A stretch of DNA of 64,000 nt from the NCBI GenBank assembly GCA_031213475.1, contig JARUPZ010000006.1, positions 1,207,501 through 1,271,500 on the forward strand, given 5' to 3'. Under the pieces are notes generated by a model. It saw only the letters and a list, made by a program, of their open reading frames with translations, had not been told where the DNA came from and ran no database searches. Positions 5,575 to 59,810 of the stretch are shown here, in pieces; the first letter of the stretch is position 1, and each line of letters begins with the position of its first letter. Origin of the DNA: Nereocystis luetkeana (lineage: Eukaryota > Sar > Phaeophyceae > Laminariales > Laminariaceae). A program made the position numbers and the translations under genes.

Positions 5575-5599
5575 AAATAGACTACCAGGTATATACAAG

Positions 5600-5850
5600 C
5601 GACGGTTACATCAACCATTGTGGCCACTGCGTGATCGGGGTACAGTATGATACACATTGGTGTCCGAGTTACAATGGTTGTTGCAAGGGGCCGTACGGCA
5701 CAGGCGCAACATGATCCTACCCGTACCTGTCCTGCTATTCCTAGGTGCTCACGCTGCTTCTACTCGTAGACTGTTCAATGGTTGGTAACACTCAAGGTAT
5801 AATTGTTTTGCTGTAGCCGCTATATCTCGAAGTTCCACAAAGGTGGTAAT
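5600..5850 (+). repeat. Dispersed repeat family C, copy 1
   Basis: It shares with 9690-9915, 12560-12770 and 37340-37520 a series of phrases in the same order: TTGGTGTCCGAGTTACAATGG, GGCACGGGCGCAAC, GATCCTACCCGTACC, GCTCACGCTGCT, then a TGTGGTCGCTATCTCG-like segment. The copies are 70-85% alike by eye, so the family is old. No open frame, terminal repeat or target duplication was seen, so its class is unknown. Confidence 0.7.
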
Positions 5851-6005
5851 CACACGTTTTTTCCATATACCCGTCAAGATCCAGCACACTGTGCGTGCTG
5901 ATTTTTCACCCTGGAGAGGTGCCAACATTTTCTGTGACAGAGGCAATTCATCGCAAATAGCGAGAGTTGCCAATGCATCGCCAAGCACGCCGGAAACGAA
6001 ACGCA

Positions 6006-6225
6006 GATCGTACACAAACCAGAGACAAATGGCAATGGAGAAACACGAAAGAGCGAAACAAAGAAGCAAAAATTGTGTCGGGTGAAAAAGGTGGTCCGCG
6101 AATCATGTGGTCAAGGTGAGCACAAACCAGAGACAAATTGCAGTAGATGAAAAAAAGAGCGAAACAAAGAAGCAAAAATTGTGTCCGGTGAAAAAGGTTG
6201 TCCGCGAGTCATGTGGTCAAGGTGA
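6006..6225 (+). repeat. Tandem duplication, about 110 bp unit x2
   Basis: Two adjacent copies (about 6006-6118 and 6120-6225) share AAAGAGCGAAACAAAGAAGC, AAAATTGTGTC and TCATGTGGTCAAGGTGAG with scattered substitutions and small indels. Local duplication, no coding sense. Confidence 0.85.
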
Positions 6226-7995
6226 GCGCTCACGCCAAGCGTGAAAGCGTACATCGGGCATTCCAGGGGTAACGCTGGCCCCTGTCGCGTGCTTGTTGCT
6301 GAAACGGTTGCGCCCTCGATGATATTTCGCTCCTGACGATTGCTCCGCAGGACGCGGTCAAGCAGTCAAGAGCAAAGATGGCTAATGATGGCTAATGACG
6401 ACTCGTGCTACGATAGGAGTTGCTATTACTGTAGGGGTACAACACTCTTTGCCTTCCAAGGCAAATATTTCTGACTGTCGGGGCTCCTCACCTGACAACA
6501 TTCCCCAATAATACGATTTCGTTGTATACCTGAGCCGTGTGGAATTATCAGGCCATATACGCTTGAAGGTTTTTCTCGACGTCATTCTTGGGGTAAGAGA
6601 GATAAAAACCTCCTTCAAGGAGCCTCACATGAGTAATAAGTTCCTTTCTACCAGTACCGTAGCCCGCGTCTGACTGCTGACGCTCCTGCGCCAAAAAACG
6701 AGCACCGGTCACGGGCGTTACCGTTGCCGTAATCCACGATAAAAAAGTAGAAAAAAACATTTTAAATAGCTGTCCACACACCCAAACAAATGTCGTCGTT
6801 TGAGATATTTGGTCAAGAGGCTCTGTAGGCGACAGTTTTTTCGGAAAGCGCCTCTTTGCGGGACTGCCTCTTTCTACAGCAGTAGGAATAGTTTTCTCCG
6901 CGTTTTGGTGGACACTTTCCTAGTGAATAGACTTGGAGATTATGCAGCACCTGGCATACAGAACCAGTACTCGTACGTATAAAAAAAAAGTAGGTTTGCC
7001 TATTGAGCATGGAATATGAGACAACAGAGTAGAACTTCAAAAGCAACGATAACCATGTCGTTTTTTATTTGTTAGTTTGTACAAACGCCAGACACCCGGC
7101 GGAAGGCGTCATGGGCAGGCAGGCAGGCCCTCCCTTCGACACTGCGCGCGCCCAAAGCTACTGTTAATGAAGACCCCCATCCCATGCGTTGCAAAAGCTG
7201 CTGACGACCCCCATCCCATGCGTTGCAAAAGCTGCTGACGCGCCCTGCCATATCGTAGGTTAGGAAAAACTGACTCCCCGATCGACAGAACCCCAAGCTA
7301 CGGTATCTATCCCTGCGGGCATTCGCGCACCCCTGCCTAGCTCCGCTTCATGTCTCGCTCCCGGAAAAAAATCCTCCCTCGAAAATAACTAAGAAACCCA
7401 TCAGCAGGGGTGGAACACGCAAGGCAACACCGGTATTAATGCCAGTACAGTAGCAAAACCACCCCGATGTTTTGTACGACGACAACAATGATGAGGAGTC
7501 TAACAGACGAAAACCGGAGCGTTGGTAGCGACCCTCTGGGTCGTGCGGCGTGGTTTTCCACTAAAGGGGAGGTCGGCAGAACGCCTCCGCTCTCCCGGGG
7601 AGGAAAAATTCTCCGTTTACTCCGCCTCCGGCCCCGTTCTCCTCTCGAGCGCTGGTCAGATTAAGATGTACGGGGGGAGGGAAGCACACATCGCGAGGGA
7701 TCGTTGGACGACACGTTGACAAAGAATATTGAGCATTAAAATAAGCCGATCAGAGTTGAACAGCAGTATGTGCCTCGGCAGCTGGACAAAAATAACGGCT
7801 TCGAGCCTTTGATGAGCATAAAACCCTCTCAGTACTCCTAGAGGGGGGAGCTGACAAAACGAAATGACGATTGAAGCATCGAACTTACCAGGCCTCGCAG
7901 GCTGTAAGCTTTGGGGTATGGTCAGGACCTTTCGGACTACCCTGGTAGCTGGTACAATGCAAGAAGTTGTACGACACTGCTCTATGCTTTCACTA
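6226..7995. other. No gene recognised; one 34 bp direct repeat
   Basis: The only structure found is a direct duplication of GACCCCCATCCCATGCGTTG plus AAAAGCTGCTGAC at about 7169-7202 and 7205-7238. Open frames in this stretch are shorter than 80 codons and unsupported. Confidence 0.4.
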
Positions 7996-8102
7996 TTACG
8001 GGGGACCATAGTAAATAGGACGTATGGTACCCACCAAAACCCATATATTTACCTGTTTTCACTGACAAATGTTTTGGTCCTATTTACTATGGCCCCCCGT
8101 AA
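7996..8102. mobile_element. MITE family A, copy 2
   Basis: Left end TTACGGGGGACCATAGTAAA and right end TTTACTATGGCCCCCCGTAA, with core phrases ACCCATATATTTACC and CTGACAAATGTTTTGGTCC. The left side is flanked by TA; the right flank is CA, so one target base has changed. Confidence 0.9.
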
Positions 8103-8171
8103 CAGACGGTCTGCCGTATAACACGCAGGGTAGTACACCCGATGGGATGACTTTTCGAGTCGGGATAGTGC

Positions 8172-8340: not shown

Positions 8341-9494
8341 GTATCCCCTTTAGGATTTCAGTAGGAAAACGCGCCCAAAAACTGAATGAAACTTACAGCA
8401 TCGGCTACACAAGCTAGGAGTAAGCATCTCGGGTTGACCGGGCCTAGAGTACATTGCACTGAACTGCACGACACGCGTGGAGCATGACGCTACTCGTGCC
8501 GCTGCGCGCCCCCACGATTCACCCTTTCACAAATGTACTGTACATAAACCCAGCAGTAGTAGTATAGCTGACTCTTAACTCTAGGCGTTTGCTCTCCACA
8601 ATGGGAGTACAGTCCTGAAAGGGCTAGTAGACCGGTGATAAGACCGCAATGATCGTGTGTACCAGTAACGCCAGCCGCCCGTATCGGTTGTTTTTACAGT
8701 ATTTCGTGGTTCGCTAAAGGTGTTCACAGTAGTCGAATACTTCGAAATATCAATGGAAGCCACGGTTGTCCGTCCGCATCTCTGTGCCGGATGAACGATG
8801 AGGCGAAGGGGGTGTTGAATCGTGAACCCCCTCGAGTACATGGTCCAAGAAGAAGATTGCTCCAACGTCTCGACGTACGTCCAGCCTTCCAAGTACGAGT
8901 ACGTTCATGTCGGGCTGTAGTACCAGCTAATAGATCGGAAGTTTTTCCCCGTACTGTGGACAATAGAGCAAAGCATCATGCGCATTCCCGACGGCAGCGT
9001 GGCCGAACATACGGGGGGCTGGCACTACTCGTACCGAAGTCGTGTGATACGCGTGTATAATACTCGTAACTACAGCAGTCTACGGTAATTCTGCGCCGGT
9101 TCGTAACCTTCGACTCGACTATCTCTCGTACAGGTACCTTATACCAGGTATAAAATATCTCGGAACGCGAGAGGCAAATCGTAAAAAACAGACGCGAGGC
9201 CAGACTTTTCGTGAGAGCACGTTCGTGTGCAGTGTGATCCAACAGAAACTAAAACAAACGGGGGCTGGCTGAGGCGATGGCAAAACTCTTCCCTTCGCAT
9301 AAACAAACAAACAGCAGGTTGCCACTGAGTAGACGCTGACGTAATAAATACGCACCCATCGTTTCATGTCGTCCATGACTCGGTCTACGGAGTACCAGGT
9401 ACCTGGTAGTCACGAAGGCCCAGCGAGGTGGAAGCGATCAAGACTGGGGTGCTGGTGCTGGACCGCACCTCGACTTGATGTGATGAAGCACTTA
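8341..9494. other. No gene recognised
   Basis: Open frames on both strands overlap around 8580-9060 and reach 103 codons. They have Arg/Ser/Thr-rich compositions typical of chance frames, and no splice-compatible exon was found. Short GTAC-centred palindromes such as GTACGAGTACG occur here, as elsewhere in the window. Confidence 0.35.
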
Positions 9495-9592: not shown

Positions 9593-9689
9593 ATACCTGG
9601 TACGATGTAAAGTAGAGTAATCCATCCTACATTGGCTAACGCTCTTGGGATTTCATGAACGTAGAAATTGACGGTAAAAGGTGACGATT

Positions 9690-17000: not shown

Positions 17001-18293
17001 TTTAACATTTCCACCTATATCCCAAGTTTCGCCAACCTCTCGTTTTTCAGCAACAATGTAGCGGGAAGGGGGAATACGGGCTACCGGCGAACATCTTGAC
17101 GACTAAGCGGGGGGAAAACGGATCTCACACACATACACTCTGTACGTACGGCTTCATACTGGTGAGCTGGAACGCCCTGTGGCGAGAAGGCTGTCTTCGT
17201 TATCTCCTGCTGTACGACGTATCATACCTGGTATAATGTTTCGTGTTTTCCCCCAATATATAGCACGGTTATCAGCGACAGGTACTAGAGGCATGAAACT
17301 CGTTTATTTTATGTGTACGTACGCAACCAGGATTGAAATGTTGAAATGGACAAATACCACCTTGTACAGCAGGTCTATTATAAGCTCTATTAACCGTATT
17401 AATAGCATAACCACAGCTCTACAGCAGTACGAGCAAAAGGCGGCTATTAATAGAGAAGATGGAAGTAGCAAAAGGCAGCTACAGCTAGCAGTAGATGGAG
17501 GATCAGACTTCGACGTGTACATCCGCTTTGTACGTACCACAGCAGTGCCAGATATGAAACTGTCTGTCTGTCTGTCTGTTTATGTTGTGTCTCGTGTATG
17601 TCGAATTGGCTCGTACCTGGTACCTTTTACCACTTCTGCTGTACATACTGCTGTAGCACCTCTGGTCGTGCTTGATGCACTTACGAGTACAGACGATGAG
17701 TAAGTCGTCACGGCAAGCCGCCATTTCAAATCTCAAATTCGACGCGGGTATACCGACTGGCACGGTACAGTAGTACTCAAATTTCACATGGATGTATAGT
17801 GGAGAATGGGAATCAGCGTTTGCCAGCCGTGTCGTTGCATCTAAAGGTTATCAAGTTTGAGCTCCCTTCGGGACTATCAACCGTGTTAATAGTGGAACCA
17901 GCAGCAGCAGCAGCAGCACCAGCACCAGCAGCACCAGCAGCAGCAGCAGCCGCAGGGGCAGCAGCTTCAAAGCTGGCATCCAACAAACAATCCACTGCAC
18001 TACGCTTTGTACGAGACACAGCACGCCTGCAGACAGCTTCCCGTCATGTTCCCTCGTAGTTTAGTGCAGCGATGAAGTGATGACGAGATAACGACGAAAC
18101 AATAGCTCAGCAGCAGTACAACTGCTGTACACTCCCGTACCTTGATCTGCTCAAGCTTCGGGTCGAGCTTTTGTGCCAAAGCGGTTGCTTCTGCATTTAG
18201 CGGCCCGCTCACGTCCCCGACAAACAGTGCCGCGGGAAGTGCAGCCACGGCTCTCGCGATTCCCTCCGGGTTCAGCTCGTCTCCGGGAACCAT
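14022..18293 (-). CDS. Unrecognised small protein, five-exon model
   Basis: Exons on the minus strand: 18141-18293 (ATG at 18293, in-frame stop just upstream, donor AAG|GTACGG), 15917-16010 (after CCAG, donor G|GTGAGG) and 15068-15135 (after TTTTTCAG, donor GAG|GTGAGG). These three join in phase and read as clean protein: MVPGDELNPEGIARAV, ALFVGDVSGPLNAEATA, then TLELCHVGNEPSAGPW and SIQAMAASLLNGTFVAP. Two more short exons are phase-compatible but weaker: 14623-14653 and 14022-14047, the latter ending EQEFVLEL and a TAG stop. The full model is 123 residues, mostly helical in character, with no transmembrane segment and one Cys. I do not recognise the family. The gene is head-to-head with the LarE-type gene, 317 bp apart, so co-expression is possible. 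The alanine-rich plus-strand frame at 15064-15247 is a shadow of exon 3 and its flank. Confidence 0.55.
15761..15838 (-). repeat. Family E unit with C-tract
   Basis: It reads CTCGAAAGGGATGCGTGGTC, then a TTGGTCAAAT-type segment and GCAAGCAACAAATGATTACG, ending in a C run. It is the reverse complement of the E units at 27.7 kb and matches 31257-31326 closely. It lies in an intron of the gene above. Confidence 0.7.
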
Positions 18294-36615: not shown

Positions 36616-36721
36616 ATTACGGGGGACCATAGTTAATAAGACCTATTGTATACATAAAAACCTATATATCTAACCATTTTTACTGACAATATTTGATCCT
36701 ATTAACTATGGTCCCCCGTAA
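36616..36721. mobile_element. MITE family A, copy 3
   Basis: Intact inverted ends TTACGGGGGACCATAGTTAA and TTAACTATGGTCCCCCGTAA, flanked by TA on both sides. One of the best preserved copies. Confidence 0.93.
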
Positions 36722-44400: not shown

Positions 44401-47400
44401 ATGATTACGCAACCGGTACTTACATTTTCAGACAAGTGGTATCACCTATAGACCGATTGAGTTGCGGCTTGGCAGAAGTAACTCATGGTGTGTTGAGTCA
44501 CGGCTTGACGGGAAAAACGTATCGTCTAGAACAACACGTTGCACAAGGAACTCATCGTCTATTATGTTACGCCCGAGCGGAAGAAGTGCATCATCTAGTA
44601 GTCTATGTATAGGTACGGCTTGTATACCGAAGTAAGTTGTCGTTGCTTATGGTGTCGGCTCAGGGGAGTTATCTTACTAGTATCGTGTGCTAGGGGAGGG
44701 GCATAGTAAGCAGGACCCATGATGGACTCGAAAACCGTGCGGATACCCCCCTGTGTTTACCAAGCGTAGTTAGTTCTGATTACTCTGTTCCCTCGTAGTA
44801 TTAAAAGTGAATTGCGGCGTTGACGGTGTAGCTTCTTTTTCTTTTTTTTTCAATAATCACTTTCACGTCCCAGCTTAACTCGTGGGGGGTTTTACCCTCA
44901 GCGATCTTCTGGACAAGCCGTGGTCACAGGTGTCATCCCTTCCCCCCCCCCGGTTCATGCCTTCGTTTTTCTCGCGCATAGGGTTCAGCGTTTCCACTAC
45001 GTGTCGACTTATGTCGCCTGCTGTCAGCTTCTGGCGCTAAAAGCCAGCCTGCTTGGGCTAGCCGTGGCAGCCACCTACCCTGAAGTAGAGTTGTTTTGGA
45101 CTATTACGGGGGACCATAGTAAATAAGACCAAATATTGCTAGTGAAAGAAGCAAAATATATAGGTTTTTGTGATTTCCGTAGGTACCATTTAATATGGCC
45201 CCCCGTAATATTACGGGGGACCATAGTTAATAGGACCAGTGGTATACATAAAAGCCTATATATTTAATAATTTCTACTAACAATATTTGGTCCTATTAAC
45301 TATGGCCCCCCGTAATAGTCGTAGCGGCCGTCTGGAACCAAAGTATACTTGTGCCGTCTACAATAGTAAGCTGCGCCTTTGGTGGGAGCGGCTTTCCGAA
45401 TTTAGAATGCCAAAATCACGAATTTTCGAATTCAGAATGCCAAAATCACGAATCACGGGAACATAAAAATCAAATCAGCTCGTCAAGTCTCAAAACTATA
45501 AATACCAGTCGAACTCGCAGCTGACGTGTTTAATACATCAATAAAATCTCAAAACCTCATATCTCAGGGAATCAAAAACCAAACCTCGGATCCCTGAAAA
45601 TATGAAGTGAGAGCTTCAAACTCTCAGAAAATCTATAGCTTCGGCTCAAATATCAGAAAATAAGAAATGAGAGTTTCAAGTCTCGGCGATATGAAATTCA
45701 AATCCTCAAATCTCAGCAATATTGAAGTCGAGACATCAAATCTCGGAAAAATATGAATCAACTCTTCAAATAGCGTGTATGAAGCACTCACTCGTGTGAT
45801 GGGCCAAGCCGGGATGAGTTCACTGGTGGACTCTCATGGTCGCACACACGTGATGCATGAAGACATGAAGTAGAACATAGAAGATTTAAACTTAAAAATG
45901 CGAGTAATGAGAAGTGTCTTATTTTGGCACCTTCCGGGTACTTATGAAACGCACCCGGGAGTAAGTATGCCAGTCGTCTCTACGTACACCAGACGGTTAC
46001 GCATAACCATCGCGTACATCTCGTACGAGTACTCCCAACATACTTCGTTGCATGTACGATTACGGCTTCCCGGGAGTAACTTATCGGCTACTTATTGAGC
46101 TATCGTCTACGCGTTGGCTTACGCCTCTAGCAGAGTTAGCCTATCGTCTACATAGAACTGCGGCCTGGCAAAAATATGGTATCGTCTACTGTAGTATATG
46201 ACATGGTGATGTGGTTCGGTATTCGCGCAGAGATTCGTACGCTAGGTCTATGGCGGTACTGTACGCCCGGTGTGACGTTGGTTTCAAACCTTGCCGCCGT
46301 ATTTTGGGCAGCTCAGCCCACGTTGGTTTTAACCCTTCACGAGCGTCTCTAGCGACTGAAAGGGTGCGCTCTGTGATGCTTCGCGTCCATCTCTAGGCCC
46401 TCCATCCGACTCGCTCTCCCACGCCCCCCCGCCCACTCCTACCCCCCCGCCCACTCCCACCCCTCCACCCCCTCGCATCATTGCTTCCACCCCCACCTGC
46501 ACCCTATCCACCTACCCACCCCCACCCCCACTCCCCTCTTCCCCACCTCCACTCCTACTCCCTTTCTTCCCTACCCCCACGCCCACCCCCATTCTCCCCC
46601 ATCCCCACCCCCCTCAGCAGGGGTTCTTAGTAGGATACAGCTCGCCCTTCATGCGACGCTTGCGCAACACCTCTCGGCGCTTCGCGCTTGGTGCAAGCAA
46701 TGCCTGCCTGGTCGGTGATAGCCCAACGTGGTCCGTCCCGGCATTGTAGGGATGTAAGGGTCTATGCTCGTACGACTACGGCCATTCATGACGTGAGTAT
46801 CCCCCTCCCCCCCCCCCCCCTTCTGATATCCAGGACTCCGCCCCCCCCATGCGTTACGCCTCTGTCGGGTTTTTTTTCGGTGCCGTCTCCTCAGAGGAAC
46901 GGCACAGGCTTTCGCGACGGACGAGATAGCAGCGACGCTGGCCCTCGAGGTTATCGCGAACGGGTGGGACAAGCTGGGCGTGAACTACACCTTCGCGCAG
47001 CGGAACTTTGTCTACCTTCCGCTCATGCACTCGGAGCGGCTCGAGGCCCAGGTAACTTGGTACTGACCCAGTAGTGAACACGCCTTTTGGTTCCACTTCT
47101 ATAAGAAAACCGACTAGCCGCTCAAGCGCTCGGAGCGGCTGGGGGCCTCTAAGCAATCACAGTGAAACGTGCCTTTTGTTTCCACTTCCGTAAGAAAACC
47201 AATGAACGGCGCACGTTTTTTTATAAGTGTACATCGAAGTATATGAGTTCAGCGGGTCTGTTTTTTGGCTGCTGATAATTTAGGGCGGGCTGGAAGTACT
47301 GTAGGCTTGTGGGCGTACACTTCAACCTGAAGGCTGTAGGGGCAGTGCCCGTCGCCCACCTAGCCTTCGACCTGTGTGCTTGTGTGCGCGTTTACTCGAA

Positions 47401-50011
47401 CACGGGCAGCAGGAAGAGTGGGTGGGGAGGTGAAAAGTGCTTATTATCTAACCCGAACCCTATCCCTACGCGTACGCATGACCGGCAGAAAGTGTATGTG
47501 GACAGGTGCAAAGTTCTTGTCTACCCCCTAGCTTACCGCATCACTCGGGTGATCAGATATCACATCCCCTGGGACCCTTTTTTGTGCTTGCCATCCTATA
47601 GTGTTGCACGAGATTTTTTTCAAAAACACTCACAAGCATTGGACCCAGAAAATGTCTTCCGTATCACGGGGGCGCACACAACGAAAAATGGTGGCTTTGG
47701 GAAGATCCCGTAGAGATATTTTCCATTAGACGCATGGCATCGCTGAATGATTGCACTGTACCCGTTGTCGAGTAAATCAGCTTTGGAGCTCGTCCGAGGG
47801 GGGAGGGGTGTTATTTTTTTTCATCACCCGCGTTTTACGGCAGAGTGTGATAAGATAACCCTACCCCTATGTAGCCCTAACTCTAGCTCTAACCCTAGCC
47901 CCCTATCCCTAACCCTGCGTTGTACTCCGTCATGGCCGGCAGGAAGAGTGCGTAGAGAGGTGCAAAGTGCTGGTGGACGAAAAAGCCATAGTCGAAGGGA
48001 AGGCTGATCTCGGGGTGTACTCGATGGCAAAAGATCACTACGACGTCATCTCCAAGTTTGGAAGGTGCGGAGCGCGAAACCTGCAGCCACCGTCGCAGTA
48101 CCTGGTGGCAGAGGAAGGCAGACTCTGTCGCTCGGCACACTACCGCACTACCGGACATGGTGGCATGCATGCTACAAATAATCCATGTCGTAGTGCTGCT
48201 GACTGCACTTACCAATCCATGCCATCTTGCATCTGTGTATCATAATGTTGCTCACTGCGTATGTTTTTGACGTCTACAGGGCAGTACCTGTTATCAACAG
48301 GGGCATTTTATTTTTCATCTTGCTTCCGTTTTGCACGATGTTAGGGCGTCTCGTCCCAAAGGCTATCACACAACTTTTTTTTAAAATAGTTTTTTGTGCC
48401 TTCAGCAGCAGTGGCCGTTGCGGCGGCGGTTGAGCTGCCGCCGTGTTGCGGCCGGAGATTGCTCGTAACGCTATCAGCCCTAACGCCGTCAACCCTGTGT
48501 CTTCGACTTCACGGGTCCATCACCCTACACCCAAGAGCGCCCCTTCTATATTTTTCCTCCGCCGCTTGTAGGTACTTACAACGCACGTACAGTTTTTTAG
48601 GCTCCTAACTTGGTATCAGTATTGATACTACTGTAGTACTCTTTGCAAGTCACCCAGAACGTGACTTCGAGAAACGCGCAACGCAGCCCGGTGGCCTGCG
48701 CATACGAGGCATGCCTTTGGTGTAAAAACACAATTGGTGTTCCGTTCCGACGATAAAAGTCTGTCTTTTTGGGTATATTCCTCAGTGCCCTCAAGGACCG
48801 ACAGCAGTCAAATATTATTATTTGGCCCATAAAGTCTACCGCTATCGTACCATGCGTCCCCCCCCTCTACTATATACCTGGTATATATATAGGTTGGGCT
48901 GGCGTCGGTTGGCGACGACGCTGTAAGACACGCCTCTCACTACGTACGTGAGCTAGACAGCCAGAGAACCGTTTTTTTTTTTGTTTTTTTTGTTTTCTAG
49001 GCGGTCACCGCGGCTGGCGCACGAGTTATAGATATTTTTTTGGGGGGGAGAACCTCACTCCGCACTAGGAGATGTATCACGTAGTATGGACATGGCAAGG
49101 CTCCCACGAGGCAGTTACATAGCAACCACATTGCTGTCTCTGGAAGTGTCCGCACCAGGAATTAAATCAATTCATTGACGCTGCCATCCATATTCGAGAA
49201 AATCCGCCTCACAAGCGGTTCTTAGTAGGATGCAGCTCACCCTTCATGCGACTCGCCCAACACCTCACGGCGCTTCGCGCTTGGTGCAAGCAATATCTGC
49301 CTGGTCGGTGAAAAACCGATGTGTTCCGTCCCGGCATTGTAGGGATGCGAGGGTCTATGGTCGTACGACTACGATCATGCATGATAATGAGCACACCCCC
49401 CCTCCCCACCCCTTCTACCAACACGAGCACGCCAACTAAGCGTTTCGTCCGCCGCGATTGGTTCTTTCATTCCCGCCATTGTTCCGCATGTTTACCCGCG
49501 TAATATTTTACTTATTATCCCGCATATAATATCGCCCAATACCCCGCTTATCGTCCCGCATACCGACCCGCTTCTTATGTACCTTACTAACCCGTTTACG
49601 ATATCTTGCTTTTTACCCCGCATGTTGTCCCACGTATGATGTCGCCGAGTTTCCCTCGTATTTTCTCGCTTTCTGTCTATATTGTTGTCCCGCTTGTGCT
49701 ACGGTCCATTGCCACGTATTGCTCCCCGTATTGTCCCGCTCATTGTTCCTGTTCGCCACATCCCGATTGTGTTTTCGCGCTTTGTTCCTTCGATTGCCCC
49801 GGCTTTGGTATCGCCCACTTCCCCCCTCCTTTTCTCGCGTATTGTCCCGCCTGACGTCCGTTTTCAACCGCAACTTACGTCTGGCTAAAGGTTCCCCCAC
49901 CGCAACTCCGCTCTGGGCCGCACTTGCACCCCCGACGAAGAGGAGTGGCTGAGTTCCGACGACATTCCTGGATGGGCCAAGAGCCAGGAGGCTTCCGCCT
50001 CTTCCGCGTAA
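38437..50011 (+). CDS. DUF924 family protein, complete six-exon gene
   Basis: Exons 38437-38505, 39220-39374, 40647-40736, 46895-47051, 47943-48064 and 49891-50011 join in phase to give 237 residues. ATG at 38437 opens a short variable N-terminus. The family core follows: VVDFWFGDLERF, AGKWWGFGPTDEVF, GALAKIIVLDQFPRTVYR, GTAQAFATDEIAATLAL, YLPLMHSERLEAQ, HYDVISKFGRFPHRNSALGR, then TPDEEEWL. These are the hallmark blocks of DUF924 (bacterial members about 180-200 residues), an all-helical family of unknown function. All blocks are intact, so the gene looks functional. Donors are GTGAGT, GTGAGA, GTGAGC, GTAACT and GTGCGG. The introns are 714, 1272, 6158, 891 and 1826 bp; the third is packed with MITEs and tandem arrays. 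The last codons (SASSA) and the stop fall inside a minisatellite. No targeting signal is obvious. Confidence 0.93.
38675..38950 (+). mobile_element. Family D, 5' half
   Basis: A G-tract of about 21 (38677-38697) is followed by TACTCGGTAGGAG, CATGCATGGCCGTAGTCG, TATGACCATAGACCCTCGC, ATCCCTACAATGCCGGGA, GCACCAAGCGCGAAGCGCC, GAGCTGCATCCTA, CTTGTGAGGCGGACTTG and GATGACAGCATCAATGAG. The remaining half seen in full copies is missing. It lies in intron 1 of the DUF924 gene. Confidence 0.85.
41472..41577. mobile_element. MITE family A, copy 5
   Basis: Ends TTGCGGGGGAACATAGTAAA and TGTGTGGTCCCCCGTAA, somewhat decayed. Core TTGTTGG and GTAGGTCC are kept. Intron 3 of the DUF924 gene. Confidence 0.8.
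41604..41724. mobile_element. MITE family B, copy 2
   Basis: It starts TTACGGGAGACCGTAGTAAT and ends TACGTTCCCCCGTGA. It shares CAGAACTCACGGTGGACCC, AAAAGCC, ACCCCCCTATGTTTAC and CGTATTTGGTCC with 44689-44801. Confidence 0.65.
41728..42790 (+). repeat. Degenerate tandem array (GGAAGTAACTCGTCGTCTATTG)
   Basis: More than fifteen imperfect units of about 40-60 bp are built on GCGGAAGTAACTTGTCGTCT, ATTGAGTTGCGGCTTGGC. Related stretches lie at 44430-44660 and 46070-46200, all in intron 3 of the DUF924 gene. A family tRNA-SINE fragment (CCTACTGAGCTATAGGGGTA and ATCGATCGATTACCCA) interrupts it at 41835-41878. Confidence 0.8.
43067..43270 (+). repeat. 51 bp tandem repeat x4
   Basis: Four head-to-tail units start at 43067, 43118, 43169 and 43220, each beginning ATGGACACGATTTCGATATC and ending TTCAATAGAG. 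They are nearly identical (the first has GATACG), so the expansion is recent. As 51 is a multiple of 3, frames on both strands stay open. Each unit contains the palindrome-rich CGATATCTGATATATCG. Confidence 0.95.
44123..44242 (+). repeat. 14 bp tandem repeat (ACGATATTTTTGAT) x8-9
   Basis: Eight to nine units of ACGATATTTTTGAT occur, with one ATGATA variant and one TTTTCG variant near the end. Intron 3 of the DUF924 gene. Confidence 0.95.
44689..44801. mobile_element. MITE family B, copy 3
   Basis: It contains GGGGAGGGGCATAGTAAGC, AGGACCCATGATGGAC, ACCCCCCTGTGTTTACC and CTGTTCCCTCGTAGTA, matching the interior of 41604-41724. The ends are decayed. Confidence 0.6.
45104..45208. mobile_element. 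MITE family A, copy 6
   Basis: Ends TTACGGGGGACCATAGTAAA and TTTAATATGGCCCCCCGTAA. It is directly followed by TA and then copy 7. Confidence 0.92.
45211..45315. mobile_element. MITE family A, copy 7, abutting copy 6
   Basis: Ends TTACGGGGGACCATAGTTAA and TTAACTATGGCCCCCCGTAA. Only the TA dinucleotide (45209-45210) separates it from copy 6, as if one element inserted into the TA target duplication of the other. Confidence 0.93.
45400..45775 (+). repeat. AT-rich degenerate repeat (TCAAATCTCAGAAAATATGAA)
   Basis: It begins with a 29 bp direct duplication (GAATGCCAAAATCACGAAT) and continues with loose units of about 45 bp built on TCAAATCTC, GAAAATATGAA and GAGAGCTTCAA. Intronic. Confidence 0.65.
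46390..46620 (+). repeat. C-rich CCCACCCC low-complexity tract
   Basis: 230 bp are almost free of G, with units such as CCCCCCGCCCACTCC and CCCCACCCCC. The complementary strand is an obvious G-quadruplex candidate. It lies 275 bp upstream of exon 4 of the DUF924 gene, in the same intron. Confidence 0.9.
46620..46822 (-). mobile_element. Family D, 5' half, inverted
   Basis: Read backwards it matches the family: TAGGATACAGCTCGCCCTTC, GCGCTTCGCGCTTGGTGC, CCCGGCATTGTAGGGATG, TACGACTACGGCCATTCATG and then a C-tract (46803-46820). It ends about 70 bp before exon 4 of the DUF924 gene. Confidence 0.85.
47440..47531 (+). pseudogene. Decayed duplicate of DUF924 exon 5
   Basis: The sequence ATGACCGGCAG followed by a frame reading KVYVDRCKVLVY mirrors the true exon 5 junction (ATGGCCGGCAG, then ECVERCKVLVDE) 450 bp downstream, including the CCCTAACCC-type bases before it. 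Similarity fades after about 40 coding bases. It is a relic of a local duplication and is not used in the gene model. Confidence 0.6.
47655..47830 (+). repeat. Dispersed repeat family H, copy 2
   Basis: It shares CACACAACGAAAAATGGTGG, CTTTGGGAAGATCCCG, GAGCTCGTCCGAGGGG and GTGTTATTTT with 8172-8340. It falls between the decoy exon and exon 5 of the DUF924 gene. Confidence 0.65.
47868..47920 (+). repeat. Telomere-like CCCTAA/CCCTAGC repeat
   Basis: The run contains AGCCCTAACTCTAGCTCTAA, CCCTAGCCCCCTATCCCTAA and CCCTG, i.e. degenerate CCCTAA units. It is only about 50 bp, so an interstitial relic or chance expansion is more likely than a former chromosome end. Confidence 0.55.
48855..49410 (-). 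mobile_element. Family D, full-length copy, inverted
   Basis: Read on the minus strand it runs from a G-tract (49395-49405) through GCATGATCGTAGTCG, GCGCGAAGCGCCGTGAGGTG, AACCGCTTGTGAGGCGGA, GTGGTTGCTATGTAACTGCC, a CGGTGACCGCC-type segment, then GTAGTGAGAGGCGTGTC, GCCAACCGACGCCAGCCCAA and TATACCAGGTATATAG to a final G-tract (48859-48866). The length is about 555 bp, bordered by G-tracts at both ends. No open frame and no terminal repeat beyond the G-runs. Confidence 0.85.
49450..49870 (+). repeat. TATTGTCCCGC-type minisatellite
   Basis: Many imperfect 14-22 bp units built on TATTGTCCCGC, TACCCCGC and CGTATTGTCCCGCT occur (near 49487, 49517, 49540, 49620, 49690, 49735 and 49840). They lead directly into the last intron-exon boundary of the DUF924 gene. 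Confidence 0.8.
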
Positions 50012-50395: not shown

Positions 50396-50950
50396 TGTTA
50401 ATGCATGGCCGTAGTCGTATGACCATAGACCCTCGCATCCCTACAATGACGGAACGGAGCACGTCGGGTTTTCACCGACCAGACATATATTGCTTGCACC
50501 AAGCGCGAAGCGCCGTGAGGTGCTGGGCGAGTCGCAGGATGAGCTGCGTCCTACTGAGAACCGCTTTCGAGGTGGATCTTCTTGCGTATGGATGACAGCG
50601 TCAATGAATTGATTGATTTTCTGATGTGGCCACTTCCAGAGACAGAAAGGGGTTTACTACCAGTATGTAGCTGCTTCGTGGGTGTCTTCCCATATACACA
50701 CTATTAATACGTGATGCGATCATCCCCCCTGTGCGGAGTGAAGGTTCTCCCCGCACAAAAATGATCTAACTCCACCGCCAGCCGTGGTGACCGCCAAAAA
50801 TACAAACAAACAAAAAACGGTACCGTGCTTGTCTACAGTAGCTCGCGCATTGAGAGGCGTGTTGTACAGCGTCGTTGCCAACCGGCGCTAGCCCGATCTA
50901 TATACGAGGTATATATGCCAAGTGTATAATATAGGGGGGGGGAGGGTGTG
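50396..50950 (+). mobile_element. Family D, near full-length copy
   Basis: It starts at GCATGGCCGTAGTCGTATGA (the 5' G-tract is missing) and continues through all blocks to TATACGAGGTATATATGCC and a G-tract (50934-50942). Opposite in orientation to the copy at 48855, the two full-length copies bracket the last DUF924 exon. Confidence 0.85.
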
Positions 50951-51182
50951 AAAAGGCTTGCTCTGGGTAGGCAGTCGATCAACCTTTGACAAGTAGCTGA
51001 GGGGTTGAATACATTGGCCTTTGTCCGCGTAGTATTGCTTGTTCGGCGGACTCTTCGGCGTACGTACTGTAGTACCTGGTATAATGAATACATAACGCCA
51101 TGGTATACACCAGCTACGAGTACTACATTTTGCTTATGGGCTTCTTTCGAACGGTATTTTTTATAGTAGTATTTAAAATATA

Positions 51183-51676: not shown

Positions 51677-51781
51677 TTACGGGGGGCCATATTAAATAGG
51701 ACCTACGGTACAGACAAAAACCTATATATTTCGCTATTTTTACTGACAATGTTTGGTCCTATTTACTATGGTCCCCCGTAA
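51677..51781. mobile_element. MITE family A, copy 9
   Basis: Ends TTACGGGGGGCCATATTAAA and TTTACTATGGTCCCCCGTAA, flanked by TA on both sides. It lies 57 bp from copy 8. Confidence 0.92.
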
Positions 51782-52230: not shown

Positions 52231-52514
52231 GCTCCTGATGTTCGATACCTGGTAGGTTTCAAACATTTTTTTCATAGCCTGGCCAAATTGGATTATCGCA
52301 GACACCCTGTTGTCGTTGTTGTGTATCATATTTTATATAAGGTCTTCTTCGTTGCTCGTTGTGCCCTCTAAAGCGCTGTAGACCCCACTCTAAAACCTGC
52401 ACCCCCCATAGCAAACGCTTTGAACAAGGTATCGCACATCACACCAAGCTTGCAAATTTGAGGTGTGAGGAGGTTTTCGATCAATTATTTTTGTTTTCCG
52501 AGTGATATGCCTCT

Positions 52515-53426: not shown

Positions 53427-54505
53427 GGGGGGGGAGAGAGGGATAGGAGATGTGGCTACAGCAAGCGCTGATGGTTGTGTACTCGATATCATGCTTGACC
53501 GTAGTCGTATAACCATAGACCGTCGCATCCCTAAAATGCCGGGACGGAGCATTTCGGGTTTTCACCAATCAGGCAGACATTGCGCGCACCAAGCGCGAAG
53601 CGCCGTGAGGTATTCGGCGAGTCGCATGAAAAGGGTGAGCTGCATCCTACTCTTTTATTATTATTATGCTTGCCATCCGACAATGTGTAGTGTTGTTCTA
53701 ATAAACGACTATAATAACAGAAAGTGAAGAACTTCCCCAGAACAAAAGCGCGGCAGTATCCTACGACAAATCAGAACTGATGTGACGCTCATGAAGACTA
53801 CTACAACCAACATCCCTCCATCTCGTCCACCAAAAAACGACCACTCCCCTCCTTAAGCACCCCCGAAGAAGCATCTACCAAAATCCTGCTATCATTAAGA
53901 ATCGCTTGTGAGGCGGACTTGCACATGGATGACAGCTTCAATGAGTCAATTTATCTTCCGGTGTGGCCACTTCCAGAGACATCGATGGGGGTAATATGTA
54001 GTGACTGCCTCATGGGTGCCTCGCCATAAACACTACGTGATGCGACCATTCCGCTTGTGTGCGGAGTAAAGGTTCTCCACCCCGCACAAATGATCTATAA
54101 TTCGACCACCAGCTGTGATCGACCGAAAAAAAAAACGGTACTACTACCCTGGTCATGTACAGCAGTTGTTGTTGTTGTTGTTCTCACATTAACTCACAAT
54201 ACAATGCAGTCCGTGGTCGCAGGACAGGCTTCAATAACTCTGGAGCAGTGGAAGAAATACCTCAAGTGAAACAGAGGCAAAAACAAAAAAACAAGCATGC
54301 GCACCCCACCACTGCGGACATCAGGGAAGAAAAAAGGAGACTATTTAAATATTAATAATAGCAGACAAAAACCTAAAAAGAAGATGAAGCGAAGCAAAAA
54401 AACCCAGCAGTATACGTGTCTTACAGTGTCATTGCCAACCGACGCCAGCTCAACCTATCTATATACCTGGTATACTATAGAGGGAAACACTGGTCGAGGG
54501 GGGGG
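53427..54505 (+). mobile_element. Family D, full-length copy with internal insertion
   Basis: The 5' part (G-tract at 53427-53436, then ATATCATGCTTGACCGTAGT to GTGAGCTGCATCCTACT) and 3' part (GAATCGCTTGTGAGGCGGAC to TATACCTGGTATACTATAG, then G-tract) are separated by about 235 bp (53661-53895). The inserted piece contains ATTATGCTTGCCATCCGACAATGTG, also found inverted at 57313-57345 and in part at 58537-58565. Confidence 0.75.
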
Positions 54506-55063: not shown

Positions 55064-55190
55064 CTACACACTTAATCCGAACAACTTTGCCGAAACTGGT
55101 CGCAGCGTAGCCGCAAGCCCCGCCCCCGCGGCTGGTGAGCGGGGGCCGCCAGAGGCTCTATACCGGAGGGCCCGCTGGCGGGCGGCCTGC
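55064..55190 (-). CDS. Possible GC-rich terminal exon
   Basis: After TTTGGCAG (minus strand) an open frame reads AARQRALRYRASGGPRSP...LRPVSAKLFGLSV and stops at 55064. Its GC content stands out from the AT-rich surroundings and the splice acceptor is good, but there is no partner exon and no family resemblance. It could equally be a chance frame in a GC-rich foldback (CCGCTGGCGGGCGG). Confidence 0.2.
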
Positions 55191-55559
55191 CAAAGACACG
55201 TTTTCACGCGATTCGGCGTCAATACAATAATAATAGCTGAATGAAATAGATGGTTATTTTGGGGCACGTTTTTAAAGGCAGTGAGGCGGTAGGCTGACAG
55301 CGAGAAAAGCGACCAAAGCGCATGTTGATGGTATACAGCAGGGATCTATCTAGAGAGCCCAAGGCATCAATGAGTGCTCAAAGCCTCCCTCTCACTCTCT
55401 CCCCTTCTCTCCCCTCTCTATTGTGCTTCGCGTGCCCTGTTTCGCGTCGCGCATTCTGATTGGCTTCCGCTATCTGTAACAACTGTGAAGCAATATAAAG
55501 CTGTAGGCCGTATGCCGTAGGCCGCTTTTATGACGGCAACCCTGTCTCCCCCTTCCAGT

Positions 55560-56048
55560 ACAACAGGAGTATTGCCAGCCCCTAGAGGAGTACTGTGTTG
55601 TAAGGTTTTCTCTGAGCTTGGTGAACTGATCGGTCTTTTACCCCTATAGCTCACTATTACGGGGGACCATAGTTAATAGGACCTATGGTACACACAAAAT
55701 CCTATATACTTAGCTCTTTTTACTCACAGTGTTTGGTCCTATTTACTATGGTCCCCCGAAATAGGTAACATCTTCACGCTTGGCGTCGTCGGTTAGGTCA
55801 CGGGGGTTCGAATCTCACTTCGAACGTTTCTTTTAAAGAAACGCTTGCGCGTGCGTCCCTTAAAACATACCTCCCTGGTTCCTCAGGCACCTGAAAGGAA
55901 GCGGGTAGGTCAGCGTACGGCCGTCGTATACGGTACCGACGCCCTAAGGATCCCGTCGTTCAGAGGGGGGGAAGAGTGTTGTAAGGATTTTACCCTGGGC
56001 CTGGGCTGGGTAGTTGATCGGTCTTTTACCCCTGTAGTTCGGTAGGTA
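55560..56048 (+). mobile_element. tRNA-derived SINE-like tandem element, copy 2 (split by a MITE)
   Basis: The plus strand repeats the order of copy 1. A partial body (GTAAGGTTTTCTCTGAGC) is followed by head TTTTACCCCTATAGCTCA, interrupted by MITE A copy 10. The head resumes with GGTAACATCTTCACGC and B-box GGTTCGAATC; then GAACGTTTCTTTTAAAGAAACG, GAAGCGGGTAGGTCAGCGTACG, CGTTCAGAGGGGGGGAAGAG, GGGCTGGGTAGTTGATCGG and a second head, TTTTACCCCTGTAGTTCGGTAGG. Pol III internal promoter boxes are conserved. Confidence 0.78.
55657..55761. mobile_element. MITE family A, copy 10, nested in a tRNA-like head
   Basis: Ends TTACGGGGGACCATAGTTAA and TTTACTATGGTCCCCCGAAA, flanked by TA on both sides. Removing it and one TA restores AGCTCACTAGGTAAC, which matches AGCTCAGTAGGTAAC in the uninterrupted copy at 52.8 kb. 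Confidence 0.95.
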
Positions 56049-56482: not shown

Positions 56483-56830
56483 AATACCAGGTAATAATAA
56501 TAATAATAATAATAGTAATAATAATAAAATTAATAATAGTAATAATTGTTATGATACTGCTTTGTATGAGGTTGAAAGCCCGGTAATTACCTGGGTTCTG
56601 GCACTGGGATCGTATTTGTATTACTTGGAAGCGTATCTTAGTTAGGTGGGAAACCAGGGGTTTTCCAGAGAGGCACGAGCGAGCGTGGTCCCAGTCTCCG
56701 TCGTGCACGAAAGGAATAAAGTGGCTCTTCTATCTCTATAAGCGAACATCAACGTGAGTACCAACGAGTGCCGGCTTAATAGGCAGACCTGTCCAGGGAT
56801 ACAAAGTGTCCCGCTCTCCGTGATCTTGAC
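56483..56830 (-). mobile_element. Retroelement-like family F, copy 1 with (TTA)n tail
   Basis: On the minus strand it runs from GATCACGGAGAGCGGGACAC through GGCACTCGTTGGTACTCACG, CGTGCACGACGGAGACTGGG, GGTAATTACCGGGCTTTCAA and CATACAAAGCAGTATCATAAC into a (TTA)n/(TTATTA)n tail (56483-56549). A simple-repeat tail and 5'-truncated relatives (12042) suggest a LINE 3' end or a SINE. The frames are short and broken. Confidence 0.7.
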
Positions 56831-57394: not shown

Positions 57395-57404
57395 TTAGTA
57401 AAAA
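57357..57404 (+). repeat. (AAT)n microsatellite
   Basis: About fifteen AAT/ATA units are preceded by AAAATAAAAATAAAA. Simple sequence, no gene. Confidence 0.9.
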
Positions 57405-57778
57405 AAACAATATCGCAATAATAATATCACCAAACTTGTAAAATATCGCCGGTAACCAGGGCTGCACGAAAAAAATACAAAACGTAGCCACACTCGCCAC
57501 GATGTCGGAATTGAAAACATACTACATCGTATATACGTAATGATACGTGTACGTATAGTAAAAGCGGGTTGGGATTTTTGTCAGAAATGAGATGAAACAT
57601 AATATGTGTTGTTCCAGTTTTTTAACTTGATTTTAGTATACCATCCCTGTCTGAGCCTCAAAAGTGTAGGGTGTTGATTGAGGGGGTGTCGATTTTATTT
57701 TTTCGTCTATGTGTATACCCTTGTTCCCACAAAAAACGTACCTGGTACAGTACCTGGTACCTGGTACATTTTTTTCGT

Positions 57779-57789
57779 AGAAAAAAAAA
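57779..57789 (-). terminator. RNA polymerase III T-run terminator
   Basis: On the minus strand the tRNA ends GGAGGCA and is followed within three bases by nine T residues, a standard Pol III stop. Confidence 0.85.
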
Positions 57790-57792
57790 GAG

Positions 57793-57865
57793 TGCCTCCA
57801 ACCGGGATCGAACCAGTGACCTTGGCAACTTCAGTGCCACGCTCTCCCAGCTGAGCTATAGAGGC
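57793..57865 (-). tRNA. trnF(GAA): tRNA-Phe (anticodon GAA)
   Basis: 73 nt on the minus strand, no intron, no encoded CCA. The acceptor stem GCCTCTA/TGGAGGC pairs fully with one G-T. The D-arm GCTC/GAGC carries AGCTGGGA, and the anticodon stem TGGCA/TGCCA holds loop CTGAAGT (GAA at 57830-57832). The T-arm ACTGG/CCGGT has loop TTCGATC and the discriminator is A. A and B boxes are intact and a T9 terminator follows. It should be functional. Confidence 0.95.
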
Positions 57866-58199
57866 TTGATGTGCAAGAGTTCAGGGTTTTTCAAACTTTA
57901 TTGTACTACAACCTTTTTTTTATCCTGTTCATAATATGTACCAGGTACCTGTGGTACCTTCTACCTGGTACGTATATACCAGGTACGTATCGTACTGCTG
58001 TGTTTGTTGTACGAACGAGCACCAAGAACCCAGGCAAGAACCTGTCTATGGCTGGTGCCCCTAGATATACAGACCATTTATTAATAGTATTATTGGCAGT
58101 GAAGCCTAAACGTTTACCTGGTACTATATTTCCGTTCGAAGTAGTTGTAGGTAAAAGAGTGTGTGTCAATTGACAAATAACGGTATAGTACCTGGTACC

Positions 58200-59810
58200 T
58201 TTTACCCAGTATAGTAGGTGCTACCGGAGGTAGATGTTCATGTTTATTATGAACGCCCCCATTGGCGTCCTATAAGCGCGACTTCACCACCTCATGTATA
58301 AATAGTCGTTACATATGCAACAAACATCCCCACGCCATCCATGTGGGTCCCCCCCCCCCCCCCGACGTTCTGTCTTGCTTCCTGGCGGTCCCTAAAAGCT
58401 GGAGCGTTTTTGAAGCGCGACACCCTCCTCTGAAAGGCAACCTGTGCAGTCAGTCACCGAGAGAATTTGGAGCAGGCGTTCCTTTACCACCCCCTTCCTT
58501 GCCATCGACTCCTTCTTGACTGAGTATATTATTCCTATTATTATGGCATTTGCCATCCGACAACGTGCAGCATCAGCTTTCAACGTTCATCACTCACAAA
58601 CATCCCCACAAATAATCTCGTCAAATAATACTAACCGCTGGCCGTGAGATGAACCGGCTTTCACGGCTGGCTCTACCATCACTAAGAACAGGTATACTCA
58701 GTAGTTGGACGGCGCACAGCAGCAAGCCAACTACGAGTATATTATTACTGGTGTTGTACGAAGTATGCATTAAAAAAAATAAAACACATCATCCGCTGTG
58801 AGATCGAGGATTCAATCGGGACTCATCTTCACTTTTCATATTGTGGCACTTGATTTTATATCGACACTTACTTGAAATTGTTTCGGCAGCTAAACGCCCA
58901 GTACTATATTATTGGCAGATGTACCCCCGGTAAATTTATTTCGGGGACTACTGCTTGGCTGCAAATATTCGCCTTGTCTGTCGGGCACGCTGCTGCACAC
59001 ACACGACTTTTGCTCGGGAATCCATGACGTGGGATGGCAATCTCCGAGTGGTCGCTGCTGTTTTGATGACCATCTACGGTTGGTGGCCTCTGATTGGCTC
59101 CGGGTTAGAGTTACTGTAGTCTTTCTCGTATCGTGTACTGTATCGTACAAAGCAGTGATTAACAATAGTGTAGAATACGTGGGACACCCTCCTCGGGAAA
59201 ACGGGGATGATGGGCAAAAGTTCTTACCAGGTATTTGTTCTGGTCTTTACAAAACCAAGTGCCCGAAGTCACCGCGCCATGACGCGCCCGAATTGACCAT
59301 TTAGTCTCCGAGCATCTTTGGCGAAGAGAGTCACATCACGTCCCGAACATTTTTTTGTATGCAAATCAATTTATTGTTATTTTCGGTCATCACCATGCAC
59401 CTACTACGTACCAGGCAGTGCGTAATCACTTGATTATTAGGGGTTCACAAGGGGGTTTAACCAGCAAGATCGATAGTTACACTGACATCAGTTAAAGCAA
59501 GACCATTTCCTTTCAGGGCTCAAAGGCACACCCACAAAACACACAAAAAAAAACTATCCTACTTGGGTGCTACAGTACTTCTACTTTACGTTTTAATCCT
59601 CTTCCTGTCTAGGGCACAAGCTACAACAACACCCAGCACGCGGTTCAGGTTCATGCATAAGGCCGGCCGTCAAAAGCAAACGAAAAAAATCTCGACAAAC
59701 TAGAGAAAATATCATAAACAACCCCACCGTGCGTGGTTTGCACTGCAAAAGGTTTCGTCTTTCCCTGCAGGCATCAAATTCCTGTCTTCAAAAGTCACCA
59801 CAGAACACTG
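58200..59810. other. No gene recognised
   Basis: It contains a C-tract (58351-58363) and a fragment of the ATTATGCTTGCCATCCGACA repeat (58537). The 130-codon plus frame at 58912-59304 and the 91-codon minus frame over the same bases show no family resemblance and no splice support, so neither is called. Confidence 0.4.

What the first reader, a model, noticed from the sequence alone, without database searches (positions are those of the whole stretch)
5583..59233. A 9-mer, TACCTGGTA/TACCAGGTA, is scattered more than thirty times across the window
The motif and its reverse complement (one palindromic family, often extended to GTACCAGGTAC) occur at, among others, 5583, 9142, 9393, 9400, 17225, 17614, 20134, 20539, 21104, 26983, 34532, 34555, 34856, 35839, 40504, 41019, 42775, 44351, 48875, 51073, 52246, 54464, 56485, 57739, 57751, 57758, 57939, 57962, 57977, 58115 and 59225. 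Random expectation for both orientations in 64 kb is about 0.5. Only a few sit inside a recognisable repeat family (for example the 3' end of family D), so spread by one transposon does not explain it. It is almost always outside exons and tends to be followed by TA-rich sequence. Related GTAC-centred palindromes (TACTGTAGTA, TACTGCTGTA, GTACGAGTAC) are also common. Possible meanings are a protein-binding site, a methylation or restriction-related motif, the core of a very short mobile palindrome, or a replication-associated repeat.
Basis: seen in the sequence. Interest (0 to 1): 0.72.

Follow-up and report, generated by a model that had tools for sequence, protein, structure and literature searches.

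The report
Genome-wide scars of jumping genes
The scattered nine-letter palindrome is most likely a scar left each time a jumping gene cut itself out of a brown-alga chromosome, so the genome appears to carry a countable record of past jumps.

Summary
In detail: 33 TACCWGGTA in the window, 0.33 expected; 182,395 in the 465-Mb genome, reversed control 1,744. The host is very likely a brown alga. Flanks of 108 sampled copies share no homology but show a symmetric preference, TA-N5-TA|CCWGG|TA-N5-TA.

Empty sites decide it. One repeat site has 2,349 matches; of the 100 listed, 83 are empty and 11 carry exactly CCAGGTA or CCTGGTA at one TA. Of 308 filled matches, the 100 listed show an end-joining-like spectrum: CCTGG 38, CCAGG 29, then CCGG, CCATGG, CCAG, tandems. 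Filled copies do not cluster. A second site agrees at a lower rate.

So the 9-mer is a TA duplication around an excision scar of a TA-specific DNA transposon. Two other scar classes fit extant elements: TATTAATA a ~105-bp MITE with the same target preference, TACAGTA a pogo-type DDE_1 element ending CAG.

The CCWGG parent was not found. Footprints are known; one uniform scar at this density was not seen in my (capped) paper searches.

The parts
5583..5591 (-). CCWGG scar TACCAGGTA
9142..9150 (-). CCWGG scar TACCAGGTA
9393..9408 (.). tandem CCWGG scars TACCAGGTACCTGGTA (two scars sharing a TA, centres A and T)
9594..9602 (+).
17225..17233 (+). CCWGG scar
17614..17622 (+). CCWGG scar
20134..20142 (-). 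CCWGG scar
20539..20547 (-). CCWGG scar
21104..21112 (+). CCWGG scar
26983..26991 (-). CCWGG scar
34532..34540 (-). CCWGG scar
34555..34563 (-). CCWGG scar
34856..34864 (-). CCWGG scar
35839..35847 (-). CCWGG scar
40504..40512 (-). CCWGG scar
41019..41027 (+). CCWGG scar
42775..42783 (-). CCWGG scar
44351..44359 (-). CCWGG scar
48875..48883 (+). CCWGG scar; the aligned paralogue at 54464-54472 has the other centre base in this alignment
51073..51081 (+). CCWGG scar
52246..52254 (+). CCWGG scar
54464..54472 (+). CCWGG scar
56485..56493 (-). CCWGG scar
57739..57766 (+). cluster of three CCWGG scars (57739, 57751, 57758; the last two share a TA)
57939..57947 (-). CCWGG scar
57962..57970 (+). CCWGG scar
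57977..57985 (-). CCWGG scar
58115..58123 (+). CCWGG scar
58189..58197 (+).
59225..59233 (-). CCWGG scar
770..873 (.). extant ~105-bp MITE TTACGGGGGACCATAG..CCCCCGTAA between TA duplications, likely source of TTAA scars
7996..8102 (.). MITE, same family
36617..36721 (.). MITE, same family
45104..45208 (.). MITE, same family (next to a second copy)
45211..45315 (.). MITE, same family
51677..51781 (.). MITE, same family
55657..55761 (.). MITE, same family
50702..50709 (.). TATTAATA scar at a TA that is empty in paralogues and carries CCAGG or CTG in others
17445..17452 (.). TATTAATA, putative MITE scar
6875..6884 (+). TA-CAGCAG-TA, putative scar of another class
8894..8901 (+). TA-CGAG-TA, putative scar of another class

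Best explanation
Each TACCWGGTA is the scar of one cut-and-paste transposition event. A TA-specific transposase of the Tc1/mariner/pogo type inserted an element at a TA, preferring RTAY with a further TA 7 bp to either side, and duplicated that TA. When the element left, the cuts were staggered inside its ends, so a few terminal bases stayed on each flank. End joining of these short complementary overhangs gave CCWGG; a central A.A or T.T mismatch is then fixed to A or T about equally, which explains W. The scar itself makes a new TA-N5-TA and is a favoured target again, giving 7-bp tandem arrays with mixed centres. Shown: exact TA-flanked 7-bp insertions, recurrence, junction spectrum, target preference, and extant elements that fit two other scar classes. 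Inferred: transposase type for the CCWGG class, overhang length (4 nt, CCAG or CCTG, or 5 nt), mismatch repair, and that the parent is extinct or very low-copy.
For: Genome-wide excess 182,395 vs 1,744. Symmetric target preference without homology in 108 copies; 85 of 238 flanks of 119 copies have TA at +-7 against 7.2% for TA-TA spacing 7 in general. Exact 7-bp empty sites: L009 vs L007 and, at lower identity, L022. Site 1: of 100 listed of 2,349 matches, 83 empty and 11 CCWGG; of 100 listed of 308 filled matches CCTGG 38, CCAGG 29, p=0.33 for equality, plus CCGG, CCATGG, CCAG 2, CTGG, CCAGGG, CCCTGG 2 and tandems. Site 2. Filled copies intermixed with empty ones: nearest neighbour filled in 14 of 23 against 14.9 expected. 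Several scar classes at one TA: CCAGG, CTG, TTAA. MITE in place at that TA. MITE ends and TATTAATA share the TAC|TA preference: C at -1 65% and 51% vs 21% for all TA. A complete TA-flanked pogo-type element with ends CAG and a perfect 26-bp inverted repeat fits the TACAGTA class. Arrays: 88 single, 8 double, 1 quadruple (AATA), mixed centres. Sleeping Beauty leaves CAG (PMC8151067, passages); Stowaway/Osmar5 footprints are 1-4 bp TIR fragments between TA duplications (PMC1925063, passages).
Against: No element with CCWGG-type ends was found. At site 1 the two patterns for a parent's right end gave 12 and 28 places; all 12 and 20 of the 28 were read and none holds an element. TACCWGG not followed by TA was seen 98 times on both strands of the sample, about twice a rough expectation of 48 that I take from the 9-mer value; decayed scars account for part of the excess. 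Published Tc1/mariner footprints are 2-4 bp (PMC7913693, passages), while CCWGG is 5. No DDE_3 match was found. In the unbiased indel scan only 1 of 14 seven-base gaps was TACCAGGTA and 3 of 14 were TA-bounded. For no CCWGG copy in the window itself was an empty site seen; the proof comes from other copies.
Confidence: 0.86

Rival explanations
1. TACCWGGTA is a conserved protein-binding or chromatin motif kept by selection at thousands of places.
For: Sharp palindrome, genome-wide, clustering and tandem overlap, a tight cluster around a tRNA-Phe gene.
Against: Exact TA-flanked 7-bp presence/absence at one TA in repeat copies, sibling junctions CCGG, CCATGG, CTG and TTAA at the same TA, and interleaved filled and empty copies.
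Confidence: 0.05
2. The unit is an ultra-short mobile palindrome or the product of abortive transposition: an enzyme installs CCWGG plus a TA directly, without a longer element ever being there.
For: No parent in any of the 32 candidate places read at site 1 and no clear parent ends in 252 kb, while the MITE of the TTAA class is found in place at the same TA.
Against: Two other scar classes at TA fit extant parents, and the junction heterogeneity looks like end joining of staggered breaks. A low-copy, frequently excising element predicts the same absence.
Confidence: 0.05
3. Tandem duplication or slippage, or templated addition of a 7-mer TACCWGG at breaks (telomere-like healing).
For: 7-bp tandem arrays exist. 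A few minor insert types at the sites, TA-C-TA (4 of 100) and TA-TG-TA (2 of 100), can equally be read as short duplications.
Against: 88 of 97 arrays are single; adjacent centres are 5 same and 6 different; there is no pre-existing CCWGG at empty sites to duplicate.
Confidence: 0.02
4. Programmed, near-complete removal of TA-bounded elements from the sequenced tissue, in the manner of ciliate internal eliminated sequences but leaving a scar.
For: Filled sites without any element for the CCWGG class among the places read at site 1.
Against: Mean decay of about 7% per site suggests that most scars are old and inherited, not made anew each generation. Brown algae are not known to have separate germline and somatic genomes (recalled).
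Confidence: 0.02

Closest known systems
Sleeping Beauty and other Tc1/mariner excision footprints (TA-CAG-TA)
   Same: TA target, TA duplication, a few terminal bases of the element left, repair by end joining (PMC8151067 passages). The TACAGTA class here is letter for letter the same footprint. That the central mismatch is resolved either way is recalled.
   Different: CCWGG is 5 bp, against a reported 2-4 bp range (PMC7913693 passages); scale is 182,395 copies of one scar; the parent is not found.
Stowaway MITE / Osmar5 footprints in grasses
   Same: TIR fragments of 1-4 bp between TA duplications, several distinct footprints at one orthologous site, repeated gain and loss (PMC1925063 passages).
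   Different: Described there for an intron of one gene (with a second gene cited); here at 2,349 matches of one site, with one dominant junction.
pogo-type (DDE_1) Tc1/mariner elements
   Same: 28 DDE_1 matches in this genome; one complete TA-flanked element of 2.6 kb with an inverted repeat starting CAGTGGGGGG and a DDE_1 plus HTH_Tnp_Tc5 transposase.
   Different: Its ends predict CAG scars, not CCWGG; no DDE_1 element with CCWGG ends was found among the 6 loci read of 28.
Mariner-Tc1 families of Ectocarpus (PMC12477816)
   Same: 17 families and about 12,000 copies, mostly MITEs, in a brown alga (passages).
   Different: The words footprint, excision and palindrom have no hit in that main text.
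Highly iterated palindromes of cyanobacteria (HIP1; recalled, not tested)
   Same: A short palindrome at high density.
   Different: Here it is a 7-bp insertion at TA with empty sites.

Membership tests
Excision footprint of a TA-specific DNA transposon | Target-site duplication (TA) on both sides of the residual bases | tested here: met
   Empty ACACTA|CGTGATACG versus ACACTA-CCWGG-TACGTGATACG; L009 vs L007
Excision footprint of a TA-specific DNA transposon | Empty sites with a single TA | tested here: met
   83 of 100 listed at site 1; 93 of 100 listed at site 2
Excision footprint of a TA-specific DNA transposon | Junction heterogeneity around one dominant product | tested here: met
   67 of 100 listed filled copies are single CCWGG, the rest variants, tandems or other classes
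Excision footprint of a TA-specific DNA transposon | Residual bases equal the termini of a known parent element | tested here: inconclusive
   Parent not found for CCWGG; ends fit for TTAA and CAG
Excision footprint of a TA-specific DNA transposon | Supporting, not defining: the full element sits at the same TA in other copies | tested here: not met
   0 of 32 places read for CCWGG-type ends at site 1 (12 of 12 and 20 of 28); for the TTAA class 3 places found, 2 with the repeat on both sides
Tc1/mariner/pogo as maker of the CCWGG class | TA target and duplication | tested here: met
Tc1/mariner/pogo as maker of the CCWGG class | A DD(E/D) transposase whose inverted repeats start CCWGG or CCAG | tested here: inconclusive
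   DDE_1 present, 28 matches; termini sought at 6 loci, clear at one, ends CAG; DDE_3 0 matches
Protein-binding motif | Sequence kept in place across copies | tested here: not met
   Presence/absence in otherwise similar repeat copies

The most novel reading that the evidence does not exclude
The CCWGG parent is absent because excision is close to quantitative: either an element that lives only transiently at each TA and has jumped of the order of 200,000 times while staying nearly copy-number-neutral, with scars acting as preferred targets for the next jump, or (much less likely) a domesticated TA transposase that removes its elements systematically. The genome would then be a saturated recorder of conservative transposition events, readable as a jump counter.
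Probability: 0.25. Interest if true: 0.85.

Novelty: new variant of a known kind. Interest (0 to 1): 0.62.

Why it matters
Cut-and-paste transposons are normally counted by the copies that remain, which hides jumps that left nothing but a repaired gap. Here the repaired gap has a uniform, recognisable sequence, so past jumps could be counted, dated by decay and mapped, and end-joining outcomes read from hundreds of natural repeats of the same break. It offers a direct test of how far excisions outnumber surviving insertions, and warns that motif searches in such genomes can mistake transposon scars for regulatory sites.

Tried and rejected
Binding site, slippage, telomere-like healing and programmed removal: see rivals. 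Longer hidden element: the flank profile of 108 copies shows none. CCRTAGGTCC as the CCWGG parent's end: it is interior to the TTACGGGGG MITE. Other repeated TACC words looked at: inside longer repeats. An inverted pair at window 6424/8336 (CTACTGTAGGGG): too short to stand. TACCWGGCA and TACCWGGTG as parent ends: these are single transitions of the scar and fit decay. Inner-repeat test on 449 TACCWGG..CCWGGTA pairs: the best were tandem arrays or a few short runs; no formal null was run. Large TA-bounded insertions between paralogues in the sample: 3 calls, two of them the same MITE at L003:826-934, the third (window 52802-55656) not followed. DDE_3: none. DDE_1 loci other than L092: no clear inverted repeat in L091, L093, L094, L095; L090 has one copy of the L092 repeat without a full partner in the piece read. 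The 9-mer as a literature term: 109 papers hold the letters, 20 were listed, unrelated by title. A genome-wide count of TACTATTAATAGTA did not complete. One search failed on a BLAST setting and was rerun.


Full report
Observation. TACCWGGTA occurs 33 times in the window against 0.33 expected. All 31 positions given are right and two were missed. The window lies in a 465-Mb, 1,987-contig assembly, at C6:1207501-1271500, where the motif occurs 182,395 times against 1,744 for the reversed pattern. The host is very likely a brown alga: EsV_1_7_cys (PF19114) gave 150 matches among 150 candidates scored (1,722 in the first look) and none in the tool's 14 control genomes; that this domain is expanded in brown algae is recalled. 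The species is unknown.

Sample. I read 19 further stretches (187,901 bases), giving 251,901 bases with the window and 108 motifs. Some later counts add six of the eight 3-kb loci, about 270 kb and 119 motifs; L004 and L005 were dropped as overlapping L006. The stretches were chosen by hand at fixed positions, not at random.

Anatomy. One-mismatch neighbours occur 0-10 times against 1.1-1.9 expected; the centre is A or T. Flanks are not homologous but show a symmetric preference: A 69 and T 61 of 108 at -6 and -7, mirrored more weakly (A 48, T 48) at +15 and +14, G or A before and C or T after. TA at exactly +-7 is found in 85 of 238 flanks, while TA-TA spacing of 7 is 7.2% in general. Other enriched words have the same build, TA-x-TA, with x = CAG, CGAG, CAGCAG, CTACAG, CTACTG, CTGCAG, TTAA.

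Empty sites. Aligning motif flanks with paralogues gave exact 7-bp gaps: L009 position 9130 against L007 at 88% identity over 317 bp, and against L022 at 76%; other alignments in that call show smaller or mixed gaps, or both copies filled. An unbiased indel scan (1,639 alignments) found TA-bounded insertions including TATA 10, TACAGTA 4, TATTAATA 2, TATTGATA 2, TACCAGGTA 1 and TACCAGTA 1; TA-bounded cases were 3 of 14 gaps of length 7 and 10 of 24 of length 6. One repeat family carries at one and the same TA either nothing, CCAGG, CTG or TTAA.

Site 1. The pattern ACACTA-N{0,30}-CGTGATACGATCA has 2,349 matches, control 0. The tool lists the first 100 in contig order: 83 empty, CCAGG 6, CCTGG 5, and one each of TTAA, CAGCAG, CCCTAG, C, CGC and a short duplication. 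Requiring a second TA (N{1,30}, then TA) gives 308 matches, control 0. The first 100 listed are CCTGG 38, CCAGG 29 (equal at p=0.33), C 4, CTG 2, CCCTGG 2, CCAG 2, CCTGGTACCTGG 2, and single CCGG, CCATGG, CTGG, CCAGGG, CTAGG, CCTGA, CCCTAG, CAGCAG, TTAA, TCAA, CGC, CGCG, TA, four other tandem forms, two compound inserts with CAG, and two inserts (TACACAC and a 21-base one) that look like changes of the repeat itself. The four C cases can also be 3-bp duplications. The pattern needs exact anchors, so altered copies are missed. The spectrum is what end joining at a staggered break would give. Twenty-three filled and ten empty copies were compared by flanks: mean distance filled-filled 0.195, empty-empty 0.220, filled-empty 0.207; nearest neighbour filled in 14 of 23 against 14.9 expected; permutation 0.29. 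Of the 23 filled, 12 are the altered scars; two of the empty copies (L052, L053) have another left flank. So the data fit recurrent independent events.

Site 2. ATCTAGTA-N{0,30}-TGATGAYATGGCA: 284 matches, control 0; of the 100 listed 93 are empty, CCAGG 1, CCTGG 1, CCAGGTACCTGG 1, TG 2, TGG 1, one longer duplication. The CCAGG copy is the L009 copy from which the site was chosen, and the TG cases can be 4-bp duplications. The rate is lower than at site 1.

Matching scars to extant elements. A MITE of about 105 bp, TTACGGGGGRCCATAG..CCCCCGTAA, lies between TA duplications. Its 43 ends prefer TAC before TA (T 60%, A 60%, C 65% at -3, -2, -1); the 56 TATTAATA loci show T 50%, A 46%, C 51%; all TA show 28, 27, 21%. 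At site 1 its right end is in place at three exact matches, 2 of 3 with the repeat also on the left (L085, L087; L086 has another left flank); L087 has a left end TCAC, which would give the TCAA scar seen once there. TTAA is what two 3-nt TTA overhangs give with a 2-nt overlap (inference). For TACAGTA, DDE_1 (PF03184) has 28 matches, and L092 holds a complete TA-flanked element, 2,612 bp with both TAs, with a perfect 26-bp inverted repeat starting CAGTGGGGGG and a transposase with DDE_1 (5.9e-27) and HTH_Tnp_Tc5 (5.6e-5). The link to TACAGTA rests on the ends alone; no such element was sought in place at a site. TACAGTA flanks resemble the MITE preference (C 43% at -1, TA at -3 20%). Sleeping Beauty's footprint is CAG (PMC8151067, passages). 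A clear inverted repeat was found at one of the six DDE_1 loci read.

The CCWGG class. It does not share the TAC|TA preference; counting both strands, CTGCAG (8 of 24 flanks, i.e. 4 of 12 distinct), CCGG (10 of 44, i.e. 5 of 22 distinct) and CCAGGG (6 of 12) do share TA at +-7 and may be siblings; the numbers are small. An overhang of 4 nt would give CCWGG from CCAG or CCTG, and CTGCAG from CTGC; 5 nt would also do for CCWGG. This is inference. Its parent was not found. At site 1, BCCWGGTACGTGATACGATCA has 12 places and all 12 are altered scars; DNWGGTACGTGATACGATCA has 28 places, of which 20 were read and none holds an element; two of the 20 (L083, L084) repeat the flanks of L069 and L070. 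These tests miss parents whose ends or anchors differ. In the sample TACCWGG without a following TA occurs 98 times on both strands, about twice a rough expectation. A low-copy element that leaves each site soon explains this; so does an extinct one.

Tandem arrays. Of 97 arrays 88 are single, 8 double, one quadruple (AATA); adjacent centres are equal 5 times and different 6 times. A scar creates TA-N5-TA, the preferred target, so repeated insertion next to a scar is expected (inference).

Age and scale. Single mutants in excess are 0.58 per intact copy, about 7% per site. Extrapolated from 252 kb, excess over chance is about 169,000 TACAGTA, 92,000 TATTAATA and 81,000 TACGAGTA, and for the twelve words tested in all about 0.7 million. 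Only CCWGG was counted genome-wide, and only CCWGG, CAG/CTG and TTAA are backed by empty sites or parents beyond single cases.

Known and new. Footprints of TA transposons are well known (PMC8151067, PMC7913693, PMC1925063; passages). In a rice comparison only 8 of 94 excisions of DNA transposons were perfect (PMC4423477, passages). The Ectocarpus transposon paper reports Mariner-Tc1 families but its main text has no hit for footprint or excision (PMC12477816, passages). Among the listed results of searches (lists capped at 8 to 20; one search found no paper) I saw no report of such scars as a genome-wide over-represented motif. The library lacks most subscription papers, so this is weak evidence of novelty.

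Noticed in passing
57739-58197: Eight CCWGG scars lie within 460 bp around a tRNA-Phe gene (57792-57865, minus strand). Whether scars favour tRNA neighbourhoods was not tested.
   Followed up: no
L092:2652-5263: A complete pogo-type element: TA-flanked, perfect 26-bp inverted repeat CAGTGGGGGGCCCTATATAGTGCAGG, subterminal CTGCAC repeats, DDE_1 and HTH_Tnp_Tc5 in a gene that seems interrupted.
   Followed up: partly
45104-45315: Two MITE copies side by side sharing the TA between them.
   Followed up: no
44137-44205: 14-bp tandem array of TACGATATTTTTGA units.
   Followed up: no
48863-54484: A repeat family in inverted copies (near 48.9, 50.9 and 54.4 kb) related to the site-1 repeat; the aligned scars at 48875 and 54464 differ in the centre base.
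   Followed up: partly
L025, L026, L027: Motif density looks higher on three small unplaced contigs (8 in 7.9 kb, 11 and 9 in 10 kb) than on 16 stretches of contigs of 3 Mb or more (0-7 per 10 kb).
   Followed up: no
whole genome: EsV-1-7 cysteine-rich repeats are very numerous (1,722 first-look candidates, 150 scored, 150 matches).
   Followed up: no
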